Notes under the pieces: model-generated
Told to the model about the DNA's origin: nothing
Databases searched by the model: none
What the model saw: only the letters and a program-made list of their open reading frames with translations
Shown: positions 43,720-49,170 of the stretch, piece by piece
Position numbering within the stretch: the stretch's first letter is position 1
Layout of the letters: each line of letters begins with the position of its first letter
Translations under genes and position numbers: made by a program
From: Bacillota bacterium
GTDB taxonomy: Bacteria; Bacillota; Dehalobacteriia; UBA4068
Assembly: GCA_030527285.1 (NCBI GenBank)
Contig: JAUNBC010000001.1
Location: 68,445 to 132,444, forward strand
Length of the DNA stretch: 64,000 bases
Direction of reading: 5' to 3'

Positions 43720-44919
43720 ATGCAAGCGGATTTTTCAGTAGCCGAGGTTGTTGAAGGCTTATACTTAGATAGTTCCTTTTCCGTATTGGACTGGCGTTCC
43801 TGCGTGATGATATTAGTCGCTTTCTTATTATTCTATCTGGCGATCAAGAAGGAGTTTGAGCCGCTGCTGCTGGTCCCTATCGCCTTTGGTATGATGCTGG
43901 CTAATATCCCGCTGGCGCATTTGATGGCGGAGCCGGTTCGTTCTATCGGCGCGGATGGTCTGCCGGTGGTAGAAAAGATCGGCGGTCTGCTGTGGTATAT
44001 GTATCAGGGCGATGAGTTGAGTATTTTCCCGCCGCTGATTTTCATGGGTATCGGCGCGATGACCGACTTTGGTCCGCTGATCTCCAATGCCAAATCGTTG
44101 CTGATCGGCGCTGCGGCGCAGTTGGGCGTATTTATTGCCTTTTGGCTGGCCTTGTTCGTACATGAGTTTGTGCCTGGCATCGAGTTCACCTCCGCTGAGG
44201 CGGCGGCCATCGGTATCATCGGCGGCGCGGACGGGCCGGTCGTTATCTATCTGGCCACCAAGCTGGCGCCGCATATGCTCGGCCCATTGGCGGTGGCCGC
44301 CTACTCCTACATGGCGCTGGTGCCGATCATCCTGCCGCCGGTCGCGCGCGCGCTGACCACGCATAAAGAGAGAATGATCGTCATGAAACAGCTGCGCCCG
44401 GTATCCAAGACTACCAAGATCATCTTCCCGATACTCTCCACCGTGCTGGTATCGCTGATCTTGCCGGAAGCCGCTCCGCTGGTCGGTATGCTGATGCTCG
44501 GTAACCTGTTCCGTGAGTCCGGCGTGGTCGATCGTCTGTCCGAGGTCGCGCAGAACGCTCTGATGAATATGCTGACCATTTTCCTCGGAGTTTCCGTCGG
44601 CGCTACCGCTTCGGGCGCGGAATTCCTGCAATGGGGCACGATCGCCATATTCGTCCTCGGCTGTTTCGCCTTTGCCGGCGGCGCCGCGGGCGGCGTGCTG
44701 TTCGTCAAGTTCCTCAATCTGTTCTGCAAAGAGAAGACCAATCCGCTGCTCGGCTTGGCTGGCGTATCCGCCGTGCCGATGAGCGCCCGCGTCGCGCATA
44801 AGATGGGTCAGGAGGAGAACCCCAAGAACTGGCTGATCATGCATGCGATGGGGCCGAACGTGGCCGGCGTTATCGGTACCTCGGTCGCCGCAGCGATGTT
44901 GCTGACGATGTTCGGTTAA
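43720..44919 (+). CDS. mmdB: Methylmalonyl-CoA decarboxylase beta subunit, Na+ pump
   Basis: A protein of 399 residues with about nine to eleven membrane helices. The key ion-binding region is EAAAIGIIGGADGPVVIYLATKLAP, with the conserved Asp at about residue 171. Other signatures are FPPLIFMGIGAMTDFGPLI and NPLLGLAGVSAVPMSARVAHKMGQ. It decarboxylates carboxybiotin and exports Na+, conserving energy from succinate or propionate metabolism. AAAGGGGTGTTATA precedes the ATG. It is the last gene of the operon. Confidence 0.95.
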   Translation: MQADFSVAEVVEGLYLDSSFSVLDWRSCVMILVAFLLFYLAIKKEFEPLLLVPIAFGMMLANIPLAHLMAEPVRSIGADGLPVVEKIGGLLWYMYQGDELSIFPPLIFMGIGAMTDFGPLISNAKSLLIGAAAQLGVFIAFWLALFVHEFVPGIEFTSAEAAAIGIIGGADGPVVIYLATKLAPHMLGPLAVAAYSYMALVPIILPPVARALTTHKERMIVMKQLRPVSKTTKIIFPILSTVLVSLILPEAAPLVGMLMLGNLFRESGVVDRLSEVAQNALMNMLTIFLGVSVGATASGAEFLQWGTIAIFVLGCFAFAGGAAGGVLFVKFLNLFCKEKTNPLLGLAGVSAVPMSARVAHKMGQEENPKNWLIMHAMGPNVAGVIGTSVAAAMLLTMFG

Positions 44920-45036
44920 GCCGGGGTCTGTTTCCAAACTGCGCGATACGTTCCCGCCTGCCTATGGGGACGTCAGACCGCGAGCAAGCTCTTTATCGGG
45001 CTGCGGAACGAGCGCGTTCGAAATCTATCGACACGC

Positions 45037-45077
45037 TGACAGCCTCAAGCGTATGCTTGGGGCTGTCATTTCTATTT
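45037..45077 (+). terminator. Terminator of the mmd operon
   Basis: TGACAGCCTCAAGC (45037-45050) pairs with GCTTGGGGCTGTCA (45055-45068) with one G-T pair and loop GTAT, followed by TTTCTATTT. It lies 118 bases after mmdB. The stretch 44920-45036 holds nothing I can name. Confidence 0.85.
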
Positions 45078-45083
45078 AGACAA

Positions 45084-45120
45084 AGAGTAACGCCCAACCA
45101 GCTGCGTTGGGCGTTACTCT
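45084..45120 (-). terminator. Hairpin ending the micro-peptide transcript
   Basis: AGAGTAACGCCCAAC (45084-45098) and GTTGGGCGTTACTCT (45106-45120) form a perfect 15-bp stem with a 7-base loop. On the minus strand it is followed by TTGTC and an A/T-rich stretch, a weak T-run. It sits about 95 bases beyond the last micro-peptide stop codon. It may also back up the mmd terminator. Confidence 0.7.
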
Positions 45121-45215
45121 CGGCATGTTATATATTTGGAATTATATGTCTGCATCGAAGCTTGTTGACGTGAGTGGGGGATAATACCACCTCCCGGTGA
45201 TGAGTTCCGCGGGTC

Positions 45216-45284
45216 TTAGCCCATGATCAGCAAAGCGGCGACGACGATAGCAATAGCTCCATAAATAAAGATATACTTTTTCAT
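45216..45284 (-). CDS. Tiny hydrophobic membrane peptide, 22 residues (copy A)
   Basis: From the ATG at 45284 the minus strand reads MKKYIFIYGAIAIVV, then AALLIMG and stop: a Lys-Lys head and one membrane helix. AAAGGAGGTGAATATC precedes the ATG, a near-perfect ribosome binding site. Copy B next door differs at 7 of 69 bases; five changes are silent and two swap Ile for Leu, a pattern expected of a translated, conserved peptide. I do not recognise the family. Candidates are an accessory subunit of a membrane complex, a type I toxin-like peptide, or a signalling peptide. Confidence 0.75.
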   Translation of the reverse strand: MKKYIFIYGAIAIVVAALLIMG

Positions 45285-45384
45285 GATATTCACCTCCTTT
45301 GATAATTAGCTGTTGTGGTATGTTGCCTGGTTTAATACATTAGGCAGTATTCCGGTAATGATAGCTGTAAACTAAGCGTTTTGT

Positions 45385-45453
45385 TTAACCCATGAGCAGC
45401 AAAGCGGCGACGACGAGGGCGATAGCGCCATAGATAAAGATATACTTTTTCAT
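45385..45453 (-). CDS. Tiny hydrophobic membrane peptide, 22 residues (copy B)
   Basis: From the ATG at 45453 the minus strand reads MKKYIFIYGAIALVV, then AALLLMG and stop. The ribosome site AAAGGAGGTGAATATC is identical to that of copy A, 100 bases downstream. The two are tandem paralogues. No overlapping gene explains the conservation. It lies in the leftward transcript that starts opposite the Lrp regulator gene. Function is unknown. Confidence 0.75.
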   Translation of the reverse strand: MKKYIFIYGAIALVVAALLLMG

Positions 45454-45525
45454 GATATTCACCTCCTTTTTCATTTTTCAGCTTGCGGCCGGTTGCGGCC
45501 GGTGATAATATATAGCTCGGCTTTT

Positions 45526-45609
45526 TTAGATTATCAGCAGAAGGATGAAGCCTAAGCCGATGGTGAAGATCAGCGACAGGTCGATGCATATCGGTAACGT
45601 GAATTTCAT
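45526..45609 (-). CDS. Tiny hydrophobic membrane peptide, 27 residues (C)
   Basis: From the ATG at 45609 the minus strand reads MKFTLPICIDLSLIF, then TIGLGFILLLII and stop. It is one membrane helix with a Cys and an Asp near its start, unrelated in sequence to copies A and B. AAAGGAGGG lies six bases before this ATG; the ATG two codons upstream (45615) is too close to the ribosome site. It is first in the leftward transcript. Between it and copy B is a 10-bp tandem repeat, TTGCGGCCGG twice at 45483-45502. Function is unknown. Confidence 0.65.
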   Translation of the reverse strand: MKFTLPICIDLSLIFTIGLGFILLLII

Positions 45610-45702
45610 GTTCATCCCTCCTTTTTTTAATCTCCTTTACTTTGTGTGGTTTTTGCGGTAAAATATTAGTAGTTGCGGACTTCGTTTCTTATCTCTTTCT
45701 TG

Positions 45703-45708
45703 ATTATA
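45703..45708 (-). promoter_or_regulatory. Candidate -10 element for the micro-peptide transcript
   Basis: The minus strand reads TATAAT here, about 95 bases before the first micro-peptide. Upstream is TGATTG at 17-base spacing (TTGGCA at 14), so the -35 is weak. The 222-base AT-rich gap is shared with the rightward lrp gene, so Lrp control of both is plausible. No rightward promoter for lrp was convincing. Confidence 0.4.
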
Positions 45709-45831
45709 TTTTAGCTAAATTATGCCAATCAGTACATAGATAAATAATCGAAAAATTCTATTTTTGCCTTAAAAAATAAGTTCTTTTGCAATTTTCACAT
45801 AATTTAATTAATTATGGATAGGAGGGCTAAT

Positions 45832-46377
45832 ATGGAGCTGAATATTGACGAGGTAGACCATCAAATACTGCGTATCTTGCAGGAGGATGGCCGCATCACG
45901 ATCAAGGAGCTGGCCGAGCAGGTGTCGATGAGCTCTCCGGCGGTAGCCGAGCGGATGCGGCGCTTGGAGGAGAATGGCGTCATAGAGGGTTATCGCGCCG
46001 TGGTCAATCCGAATAAGCTGGGCTTGAGCGTGCACGGTTATTTGATCGCCGACGTGCCGATAAGCAAGCGCGATCAGTTTTACCGCTATGTATTTGAACA
46101 GCGGGCGTTTATATCCGGCGCAACTGTCATGTCCGGCGGCAAGGAGGCGGTATTACAGTTTTGCTGCCGCGACGCCGCGCAATGGATGAATATACAGAAC
46201 GACTTTTTTGATATCGCGCAGGTCACCACGCATCTATGCACTTATCCGCCGTTCAAAAACGCTATCATTGACCCGCAGGTGGCTGTTGACGACGAGCGCG
46301 AGCAATACGCCTTCCTCGAAACCATACGCAAGATCGCCGCGGACGAGCAGAAGCAGAATAATAAGGGCAAGCGCTGA
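45832..46377 (+). CDS. Lrp/AsnC-family transcriptional regulator
   Basis: A protein of 181 residues. The N-terminal helix-turn-helix is DEVDHQILRILQEDGRITIKELAEQVSMSSPAVAERMRRLEENGVIEGYRAVVNPNKLGL. A RAM/AsnC ligand domain follows at about 70-150, ending in a 30-residue charged tail. Such regulators sense amino acids and often control amino-acid transport or neighbouring genes. The ATG at 45832 follows GATAGGAGGGCTAAT. It is divergent from the micro-peptide genes and is followed three bases later by dinG. Confidence 0.92.
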   Translation: MELNIDEVDHQILRILQEDGRITIKELAEQVSMSSPAVAERMRRLEENGVIEGYRAVVNPNKLGLSVHGYLIADVPISKRDQFYRYVFEQRAFISGATVMSGGKEAVLQFCCRDAAQWMNIQNDFFDIAQVTTHLCTYPPFKNAIIDPQVAVDDEREQYAFLETIRKIAADEQKQNNKGKR

Positions 46378-46380
46378 GCA

Positions 46381-49170
46381 ATGGCAGATATCGTCATCAT
46401 CGACATCGAGACCAGCGGTCTGGACGCGGAACGCGAGCAGATCATCGAGCTGGCGGCGGTCAAAGTACGCCGCGGATTGATCGTGGACAGTTTCTCCTCG
46501 CTGGTAGCCTGCGAACGCTGCTTGAGCGAGGAGATCGTGGCGCTGACCGGCATCAGCGAGGAAATGCTGATCGGTCAGCCGGCTGTGGAAGAGGTGATAG
46601 CGCGGCTGGAGCAATTCGTCGGCGATGCGGCGATCGGCGCGCATAACGCCGGCTTCGATCGCGGCTTCGTGCAGCGTGCATGGGCGGATCAGCGGCCATG
46701 GCTGGATACGATCACATTGGCGCAGATCGTCTATCCGTGCAGCTCGTCCTATTCCCTGGCCTGGCTGTGCGACAGCCTCGGCATCGACAATCGCTCCGCG
46801 CATCGCGCGCTGGGCGACGCTATGGCAACCGCCGAGCTGTATATACTGCTGGAGAAGGGGCTGGCGGCGCTGCCGCCGCGCGCCAAGGAGGATCTGCTGC
46901 AATTAGCCGGCGACGAGGATACGCCGCTCGGCGAGCTGCTGCGCCGTCATTGCCGCGTCAAGGCCTCGGACAGCGTGGACGGCGGGCGCGTCGGCAAACG
47001 CGAAGCAACGCCGCGCCGCCGTGAGAGCGGCGAGTACAGCGTGTCCAAGGACGATATCGCCAGCTATATCTCAGCCGACGCCGAGCATCAGCAGCGTATC
47101 GAGGGCTTTGAATTTCGACCGCAGCAGCTGGAAATGTCCTGCGCTGTGGCTGACGCTTTGAACGAGCGCGAATATTTGCTGGTCGAGGCTGGTACGGGTA
47201 CGGGCAAGTCGCTGGCCTATTTGCTGCCGTCGGCGCTGTTCGCGCTGGGCAGCGGCAATCAGGTGGCGATATCCACGCATACGCGCAATTTACAGGAGCA
47301 ATTGCTGAACAAGGATATACCGATGCTGGCCAAGCTGCTGGACCGGCCGCTGCGCGCCGCGCTGCTCAAGGGGCGCGGCAATTATCTGTGTAAGCGGCTA
47401 TATAAGTATCTGCTCAAAGAACCGCCGGAAAATCTGCGCTATTTTCTGATGCGCGTGGCCGTATGGTCGGCATTGTCGGCTACCGGCGACGGCGGCGAGA
47501 TGGGCGTCAACGCTTATGAGCGCTGGAAATGGCAGCGGCTTTGCGCCTCGCGGGAGAATTGCGCGCCCTTTTGCCCTTATTCGCGCAACGGCGCCTGCTA
47601 TGTGCAGCAGGCGCGCTTGGCGGCAGCGGCGGCGGATATACTGATACTCAACCATTCGCTGCTGATCGCCAATGCGGCGATAGAGAAGGGCTTTTTGCCG
47701 GCGCTGCCTTTTTTGATCGTCGATGAAGCGCAGCATTTAGAAGGCGCGGCCGAGGATCAATTATCCTCGCAGATCGATTTCTATGCGATACTGAACCTGC
47801 TCGCGCGCCTGCGGCGGCGGGAGAAGGGCAGGGCGGCAGGCAGCATCGTTACGCTGCGTAAACGGCTGGACGACGTGTTCCTCGACAGCCAATTACGCGA
47901 AACGGCGCTCACGGTGCTGGACGGCCTGGAGAGCTCGCTGGATAATACGGTGGAGCTGGCGGAGCGATTTTTTTTACTGATCGCCGAGTATTTCAAGCCG
48001 CAGTTGAGCCGCGCCGACTATTTCCCTCTCAAACAGCGTGTGCTCGATGATTATCGGGAGAGCGAGGCCTGGCAGGATATCAGCGAGCGCGGCCGCGAGC
48101 TGATAAACGCGCTGACCGGCGCGCATAAGCAATGCTTCCGTCTCTGGGACTTGCTGAGCGGCGCGGAGGAGCAGCGGGAGGAGGAGCAGCCGCGCGCCGC
48201 TGATGGCGCGGAGGACGTATACGCCGCCGGCTTGCATTGCCGCGAATTGGCGCAGACCCTGGAATTATGCTTGGACGGCGACGATAATTACGTAATATGG
48301 ATAGAGTTTGCCGATAAGGACAAAAAACCGTCGCTGAACGCCGCGCCGGTAGAGCTGAATGAGCTGCTCAACTATTGCTTGTATCAGAATACCGAGGCGC
48401 TGGTAATGACCTCGGCCACTCTGTCCGCCGGACGCGGCGGCTTCAGCTTCTTCAAAAAGCGGCTCGGTTTGGATCTGACGGATAAACCGCTGACGGAATT
48501 GGTATTAAGCTCGCCCTTCTATTATCGTGAGCAGGCCTTATGCGCCATAGTCAACGATCTGCCCGATTGGAGCAATTGCGGCGACGCTATCGCCGCGCCA
48601 CAGATCGCGCAGACCTTGCTCAAGCTGCTCAGCGCTTCCCAAGGGCGGGCGATAGTGCTGTTTACCTCGCATCAGCAGTTGAATAACGTCTATCAGCAGA
48701 TCAAAACGCCGCTGGCGCAGCGGGGGATAACGGTGCTGGCGCATGGCGCGAGCGGCGATCCTTCGCATTTGCTGCAGCGGCTGAAAAAAGAACGGCAATG
48801 CTGTATCCTCGGAGCGAACAGCTTCTGGGAAGGCGTTGACGTACTGGGCGAGGCGCTGTCGCTGATCGTGGTAGTGCGGCTGCCTTTCTGGCCGCCTAAT
48901 TCACCGATCGCCGCCTCGCGGATGGAGCGCATCGAGCAATCCGGCGGCTCATCTTTTGCCGAATATAGCTTGCCGCAAGCGCTGATCCGCTTCAAGCAGG
49001 GCTTCGGCCGTTTGATACGCTCCGATAAGGATAGCGGCGTGTTCTGCGTGCTCGACAGGCGCATCATCGAGAAAAGCTACGGGCGCAGCTTCATCAAGTC
49101 GCTGCCCGATATGGAGGTCGTGATCGGCGGCAGCGACGAGATCGCGGCGCAGATCAAAAAGCGGATATAG
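46381..49170 (+). CDS. dinG: DinG-type ATP-dependent helicase with N-terminal 3'-5' exonuclease domain
   Basis: A protein of 929 residues. An N-terminal DEDD exonuclease domain (VIIDIETSGLDAEREQIIELAAV, GAHNAGFDRGF, HRALGDAMATAELY) is fused to an XPD-like helicase with Walker A EAGTGTGKSLAYLLP near residue 270 and box II FLIVDEAQHLEG (DEAQ). Four cysteines lie where the XPD/DinG Fe-S cluster sits: C337 (NYLCKRLY), then ENC, PFC and GAC in the next 70 residues. Motif VI is LPQALIRFKQGFGRLIRS. The exonuclease fusion is the Bacillota form. The role is unwinding of R-loops and damaged DNA. Confidence 0.93.
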   Translation: MADIVIIDIETSGLDAEREQIIELAAVKVRRGLIVDSFSSLVACERCLSEEIVALTGISEEMLIGQPAVEEVIARLEQFVGDAAIGAHNAGFDRGFVQRAWADQRPWLDTITLAQIVYPCSSSYSLAWLCDSLGIDNRSAHRALGDAMATAELYILLEKGLAALPPRAKEDLLQLAGDEDTPLGELLRRHCRVKASDSVDGGRVGKREATPRRRESGEYSVSKDDIASYISADAEHQQRIEGFEFRPQQLEMSCAVADALNEREYLLVEAGTGTGKSLAYLLPSALFALGSGNQVAISTHTRNLQEQLLNKDIPMLAKLLDRPLRAALLKGRGNYLCKRLYKYLLKEPPENLRYFLMRVAVWSALSATGDGGEMGVNAYERWKWQRLCASRENCAPFCPYSRNGACYVQQARLAAAAADILILNHSLLIANAAIEKGFLPALPFLIVDEAQHLEGAAEDQLSSQIDFYAILNLLARLRRREKGRAAGSIVTLRKRLDDVFLDSQLRETALTVLDGLESSLDNTVELAERFFLLIAEYFKPQLSRADYFPLKQRVLDDYRESEAWQDISERGRELINALTGAHKQCFRLWDLLSGAEEQREEEQPRAADGAEDVYAAGLHCRELAQTLELCLDGDDNYVIWIEFADKDKKPSLNAAPVELNELLNYCLYQNTEALVMTSATLSAGRGGFSFFKKRLGLDLTDKPLTELVLSSPFYYREQALCAIVNDLPDWSNCGDAIAAPQIAQTLLKLLSASQGRAIVLFTSHQQLNNVYQQIKTPLAQRGITVLAHGASGDPSHLLQRLKKERQCCILGANSFWEGVDVLGEALSLIVVVRLPFWPPNSPIAASRMERIEQSGGSSFAEYSLPQALIRFKQGFGRLIRSDKDSGVFCVLDRRIIEKSYGRSFIKSLPDMEVVIGGSDEIAAQIKKRI

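What the first reader, a model, noticed from the sequence alone, without database searches (positions are those of the whole stretch)
45216..45609. Operon of three unannotated micro-peptides (22, 22 and 27 residues) divergent from an Lrp regulator
Each has a strong AAAGGAGG-type ribosome site at the right distance, a basic or polar head and one membrane helix. Copies A and B are tandem paralogues with identical ribosome sites; of 7 differing bases in 69, five are silent and two are Ile to Leu, so the peptides look selected. They have their own candidate promoter and terminator and lie between the Na+-pump operon and lrp. No known family came to mind. Hypotheses: small subunits of a membrane pump or transporter (KdpF/CydX-like), a type I toxin array (Ibs-like), or Lrp-controlled regulators of amino-acid transport.
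Basis: partly seen in the sequence, partly recalled or inferred. Interest (0 to 1): 0.75.

Follow-up and report, generated by a model that had tools for sequence, protein, structure and literature searches.

The report
Tiny membrane peptides beside lrp gene
Next to an amino-acid-response regulator (Lrp), this uncultured bacterium carries three unannotated genes for 22- to 27-residue membrane peptides; they look real and belong with the regulator, but what they do is only a guess, most likely adjusting a membrane transporter or pump.

Summary
Three minus-strand ORFs (27, 22, 22 aa), each with an AGGAGG ribosome site and one hydrophobic helix, are the only ones of their kind in the 64 kb window (shuffled windows average 0.01). 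Copies A and B differ at 7 of 69 bases: 5 silent, 2 Leu/Ile. Their likeness stops sharply outside ribosome site plus ORF, so the peptide looks selected (P about 0.01-0.02). No sequence homologue was found in 35 genomes of the order; none for A in phages or plasmids; no Pfam or NCBIfam family matched.

New here: a 28-aa and a 29-aa TM-peptide ORF with the same AGGAGGG site lie divergent from the related lrp-type gene in two other genera, at start-to-start distances of 240 and 232 nt (223 here). Seven relatives have mmdB directly before dinG with neither lrp nor peptide between. About 40 other Lrp loci show no comparable ORF. Peptides and lrp look like one module whose peptides diverge fast.

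Best reading (0.5): an Lrp-linked set of single-span membrane peptides acting as accessory or regulatory subunits of a membrane protein encoded elsewhere. Rivals: type I-like hydrophobic toxins; SHP-like pheromone precursors. Function is inferred, not shown.

The parts
45526..45609 (-). Peptide C, 27 aa: MKFTLPICIDLSLIFTIGLGFILLLII; first ORF of the unit
   Evidence: positional counterpart of a 28-aa ORF in G001 (L034:5694-5780 -) and a 29-aa ORF in G009 (L005:1183-1272 -)
45385..45453 (-). Peptide A, 22 aa: MKKYIFIYGAIALVVAALLLMG
45216..45284 (-). Peptide B, 22 aa: MKKYIFIYGAIAIVVAALLIMG, tandem paralogue of A
   Evidence: 7 of 69 bases differ, 5 silent, 2 Leu/Ile; flanks outside ribosome site plus ORF not alike
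45285..45300 (-). Ribosome site of B, AAAGGAGGTGAATATC, identical to that of A (45454-45469)
   Evidence: only two exact copies with ATG in the genome
45084..45121 (-). Hairpin (stem about 16 bp, 7-nt loop, moderately T-rich tail), probable end of the transcript
   Evidence: (MFE and centroid), sequence
45703..45708 (-). TATAAT, candidate -10 of the peptide unit; -35 poor (TTGGCA, 14-nt spacing)
   Evidence: read; not found by the scanner
45763..45787 (-). 25-bp stretch of the lrp/peptide intergenic region, 21 of 25 identical in G001; candidate shared operator
   Evidence: score 30, 0 of 500 shuffles as high; no such match to G009
45832..46377 (+). lrp-type regulator, divergent; AsnC-type HTH strong, ligand-binding (RAM) domain not recognised by Pfam in this copy but recognised, some weakly, in its relatives
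45037..45068 (+). Terminator-like hairpin after mmdB, separating it from the convergent peptide unit

Best explanation
Three genuine micropeptide genes share a divergent control region with an lrp-type gene and form a small module with it. The transcript probably starts roughly 90 nt before C and ends at the hairpin after B. Each peptide is a single hydrophobic helix inserted in the membrane (N-terminus positively charged in A and B). They act in trans as accessory or regulatory subunits of a larger membrane protein, most likely an amino-acid or other nutrient transporter, and Lrp adjusts their dose to amino-acid supply. Shown: the ORFs, ribosome sites, A/B constraint, and the recurrence of the arrangement in three genera. 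Inferred: transcription as one unit, Lrp control, membrane insertion, and partner.
For: Unique ORF class in the window against shuffles. Protein-level constraint A against B. Divergent TM-peptide ORFs with AGGAGGG sites at 240 nt (G001) and 232 nt (G009) from the related lrp, against 223 nt here. In G001 the whole neighbourhood mmdB-peptide-lrp-dinG-folE is conserved. mmdB and dinG adjoin, with a 68-161 nt gap and no lrp or small ORF with a ribosome site, in G003, G009, G010, G011, G019, G033 and G034. 24 more distant Lrp loci and 18 further Lrp loci of the class show no divergent ORF of this strength. The five family Lrps group together (90/89). A 25-bp intergenic stretch is shared with G001. 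Precedents, from abstracts: AcrZ/AcrB (PMC7267776) and CydX, whose sequence is plastic (PMC6005532).
Against: No sequence homologue of any peptide was found, so orthology rests on position and character. Two of the five grouped Lrps (G013, G003) have no such peptide, and the three peptide-bearing ones do not form one clade. No transporter is adjacent, so no partner is indicated. No expression data. Lrp binding was not tested.
Confidence: 0.5

Rival explanations
1. Type I-like hydrophobic toxin array: the peptides depolarise the membrane when made in excess and are held down by antisense or structured RNA.
For: Size, hydrophobicity and tandem duplication fit. A toxic single-TM peptide with antisense RNAs is known (DinQ, PMC3567139, abstract). 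A weak plus-strand promoter-like site lies at 45278-45306.
Against: No credible Rfam match. Ribosome sites are in the range of ordinary neighbouring genes, at its buried end. The RNA as a whole folds little better than shuffles (z -0.68). A and B differ by silent changes while the peptide is kept. Linkage to lrp in three genera is not what I would expect of such loci.
Confidence: 0.2
2. Short hydrophobic pheromone precursors (SHP-like): exported, cut to a C-terminal peptide, re-imported and sensed, with the divergent regulator as part of the circuit.
For: Close architectural likeness: SHP2/SHP3 are 22-23 aa unannotated ORFs (PMC13361665) and groups I and II are divergent from rgg (PMC3679016). 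A and B are 22 aa, start MKK and end in Gly.
Against: Mature SHPs start at a conserved Asp/Glu (PMC3679016), and A and B contain no acidic residue. The regulator is AsnC/Lrp type, not Rgg. Export, protease and import genes were not looked for.
Confidence: 0.12
3. Leader peptides or a regulatory RNA: Ile/Leu-rich ORFs that sense branched-chain amino acids by ribosome stalling.
For: C is rich in Ile and Leu codons, and an lrp gene is adjacent.
Against: No same-strand gene follows before the hairpin, because the next gene (mmdB) is convergent. A/B selection is on residues.
Confidence: 0.05
4. Chance ORFs in an AT-rich intergenic stretch.
For: No sequence homologues outside this genome.
Against: Shuffle counts, A/B constraint, recurrence beside lrp in G001 and G009.
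Confidence: 0.05

Closest known systems
Single-span accessory peptides of membrane complexes (KdpF, CydX, AcrZ)
   Same: Length range, one hydrophobic helix, tolerance of sequence change (CydX, PMC6005532)
   Different: Those act with a known partner; here no partner gene adjoins, there are tandem copies, and an lrp gene is divergent
SHP pheromone genes divergent from rgg (PMC13361665, PMC3679016)
   Same: 22-23 aa hydrophobic ORF, unannotated, divergent from a regulator
   Different: No acidic residue in A and B; regulator is Lrp/AsnC, not Rgg; three ORFs in a row
Type I toxins such as DinQ (PMC3567139) and Ibs (from memory)
   Same: Short hydrophobic single-helix peptides, some in several copies
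   Different: No antisense RNA family found; linkage to lrp in three genera
Small subunits of NSS amino-acid transporters (MetS-like; from memory)
   Same: Small TM peptide linked to amino-acid transport; a MetS-like ORF lies near the lrp relative in G003 (by eye, not tested)
   Different: No transporter beside the peptides here

Membership tests
SHP/Rgg systems | Divergent 20-25 aa hydrophobic ORF | tested here: met
   A and B, 22 aa; features from PMC13361665 and PMC3679016
SHP/Rgg systems | Asp/Glu at the start of the mature C-terminal peptide | tested here: not met
   A and B have no Asp or Glu; C has one Asp at position 10, 17 residues from the end
SHP/Rgg systems | Rgg (RRNPP, TPR) receptor | tested here: not met
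   adjacent regulator is AsnC/Lrp type
Type I toxin-antitoxin | Antisense or trans RNA antitoxin | tested here: inconclusive
   no credible Rfam match; one weak plus-strand promoter-like site inside the array
Type I toxin-antitoxin | Toxic on overexpression | not testable with these tools
   needs experiment
KdpF/CydX/AcrZ-type accessory peptide | Single TM helix, under about 50 aa | tested here: met
   mean hydropathy of the best 16-residue stretch 2.8-2.9
KdpF/CydX/AcrZ-type accessory peptide | Match to a known family model | tested here: not met
   no significant Pfam or NCBIfam hit
KdpF/CydX/AcrZ-type accessory peptide | Physical partner complex | not testable with these tools
   no partner gene adjacent
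Lrp/AsnC regulator (neighbour) | AsnC-type HTH plus RAM ligand-binding domain | tested here: inconclusive
   HTH E 2e-17; RAM domain not listed in this copy, listed in the four relatives (E 2e-6 to 8e-3, only one above the curated cut-off)

The most novel reading that the evidence does not exclude
An Lrp-type regulator and a set of fast-evolving single-helix peptides form a two-sided module, gained or lost as a unit, in which the peptides feed amino-acid or membrane state back to Lrp, either as transporter modulators or as a pheromone sensed through an Lrp instead of an Rgg receptor.
Probability: 0.12. Interest if true: 0.75.

Novelty: new variant of a known kind. Interest (0 to 1): 0.42.

Why it matters
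Gene callers skip ORFs this short, and homology searches miss peptides that change this fast. Here position next to a particular Lrp subfamily reveals them where sequence does not. If the peptides tune transport under Lrp control, this would be a compact amino-acid-response module, and the same positional test could uncover more micropeptides beside regulators.

Tried and rejected
Homologues of A/B and C in family and order genomes: none; weak hits were short matches, two of three inside long frames. Phage and plasmid tblastn with A: no match. Viral contig search: query too short. The weak G012 hit of the G009 peptide appears to lie on the reverse strand of longer genes and was dropped. The G016 hit of the G001 peptide was not a credible small gene. 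SHP membership was rejected on the acidic residue and the receptor. A link to the Na+ pump itself was rejected because the peptide follows lrp, not mmdB. Leader-peptide reading was set aside because no same-strand gene follows. Structure prediction was not run, because all three peptides are under the 30-residue minimum.

Full report
Observation. The minus strand between mmdB and lrp carries three ORFs: C (45609-45526, 27 aa), A (45453-45385, 22 aa) and B (45284-45216, 22 aa), each with an AGGAGG-type ribosome site. A scan for AGGAGG followed at 3-12 nt by a start codon and an 18-40 aa frame with a hydrophobic stretch finds exactly these three in 64 kb. Shuffled windows average 0.01; 2000 shuffles of the 711-nt region never reach two; 251 kb of other loci holding Lrp genes have none. 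A and B differ at 7 of 69 bases, 5 silent and 2 Leu/Ile. If substitutions ignored the protein, two or fewer replacements would occur in 1-2% of cases. Similarity ends abruptly outside the 16-base ribosome site plus ORF, so the pair is not simply a recent copy of a longer stretch. One pair of paralogues is thin evidence by itself.

Transcription signals. A strong hairpin (stem about 16 bp) follows B at 45121-45084, and a terminator-like hairpin ends mmdB at 45037-45068. A TATAAT stands about 95 nt before C, but its -35 partner is too close, so the promoter is only a candidate. The whole RNA folds little better than shuffles (z -0.68). The ribosome sites are somewhat buried (probability unpaired 0.02-0.08), but so are those of some ordinary genes of the window (0.02-0.66).

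Relatives. No Pfam or NCBIfam family matches. No sequence homologue of the peptides was found in 20 family genomes, in 35 genomes of the order (A/B profile), or, for A, in phages or plasmids. The own genus is represented by this genome alone, so close relatives are missing. Using the lrp gene as anchor gave more. In G001, another genus of the family, the neighbourhood mmdA-mmdB-[gap]-lrp-dinG-folE is the same, and the gap holds a minus-strand 28-aa ORF, MTLFCAAWTVAFFAFSVFAAYCKVHGQH, with an AGGAGGG site. In G009 the related lrp lies in a different place but again has a divergent 29-aa ORF, MSKDMISTVLLTVLLVAVAIIYLASRYLG, with AGGAGGG, followed closely by a hairpin and T-run. Start-to-start distances to lrp are 223 (here), 240 and 232 nt. 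The G001 helix is less hydrophobic (2.1 against 2.8-3.0) and holds two Cys.

Presence and absence. In G003, G009, G010, G011, G019, G033 and G034 mmdB lies directly before dinG (gap 68-161 nt), with neither lrp nor a small ORF with a ribosome site between. Two further Lrps of the same group, G013 and G003, have no such peptide. 24 other Lrp loci and 18 more in the class show no divergent ORF of comparable strength; two weak ones appear in one locus. In the Lrp tree the five family members group together (90/89) but the three peptide-bearing ones do not form one clade, so gain followed by loss, or repeated gain, is required. A 25-bp stretch of the intergenic region is shared with G001 beyond all 500 shuffles, not with G009.

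Interpretation. The pairing with one Lrp subfamily is the strongest functional clue. I favour single-span accessory or regulatory peptides acting on a membrane protein encoded elsewhere, with dose set from the shared control region. This would explain size, N-terminal charge, hydrophobicity and tolerance of sequence change (compare CydX, PMC6005532). The partner is unknown and Lrp control is inferred from position. The toxin reading keeps 0.2: size and tandem copies fit, but no antisense RNA was found. The SHP pheromone reading is attractive in architecture (22-23 aa, divergent from a regulator; PMC13361665, PMC3679016), but A and B lack the conserved acidic residue and the regulator is not Rgg. 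A search for papers joining Lrp/AsnC regulators with peptide signalling found nothing relevant, and one joining Lrp with small membrane proteins found no paper with Lrp in it; the paper library is partial.

Limits. Membership by sequence could not be shown for any peptide. Many of the genomes are incomplete drafts, so absences are weaker than presences. All function is inference. The identity of the host organism was not established here.

Noticed in passing
L035:4571-4693: In G003 a 40-aa ORF (MTIGAIIWMIILLGFHFVFFGWTIKNSMQEVKVCVDDDEK) with a strong ribosome site lies upstream of the lrp relative, after what may be a transporter gene; it resembles MetS-type small subunits by eye, not tested.
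   Followed up: no
window 45480-45500 -: Direct repeat CCGGCCGCAA-CCGGCCGCAA between C and A, just before the ribosome site of A.
   Followed up: no
L033:2889-4258: In G013 the lrp relative is divergent from a D-cysteine desulfhydrase-like gene (by eye) with what looks like a tRNA gene in between, instead of a peptide.
   Followed up: partly
window 44919-46381: lrp plus peptides sits as an extra segment between mmdB and dinG, which adjoin in seven relatives.
   Followed up: yes
window 45832-46377: The C-terminal half of this Lrp is not recognised by the Pfam RAM-domain model, and it has a long charged tail.
   Followed up: partly
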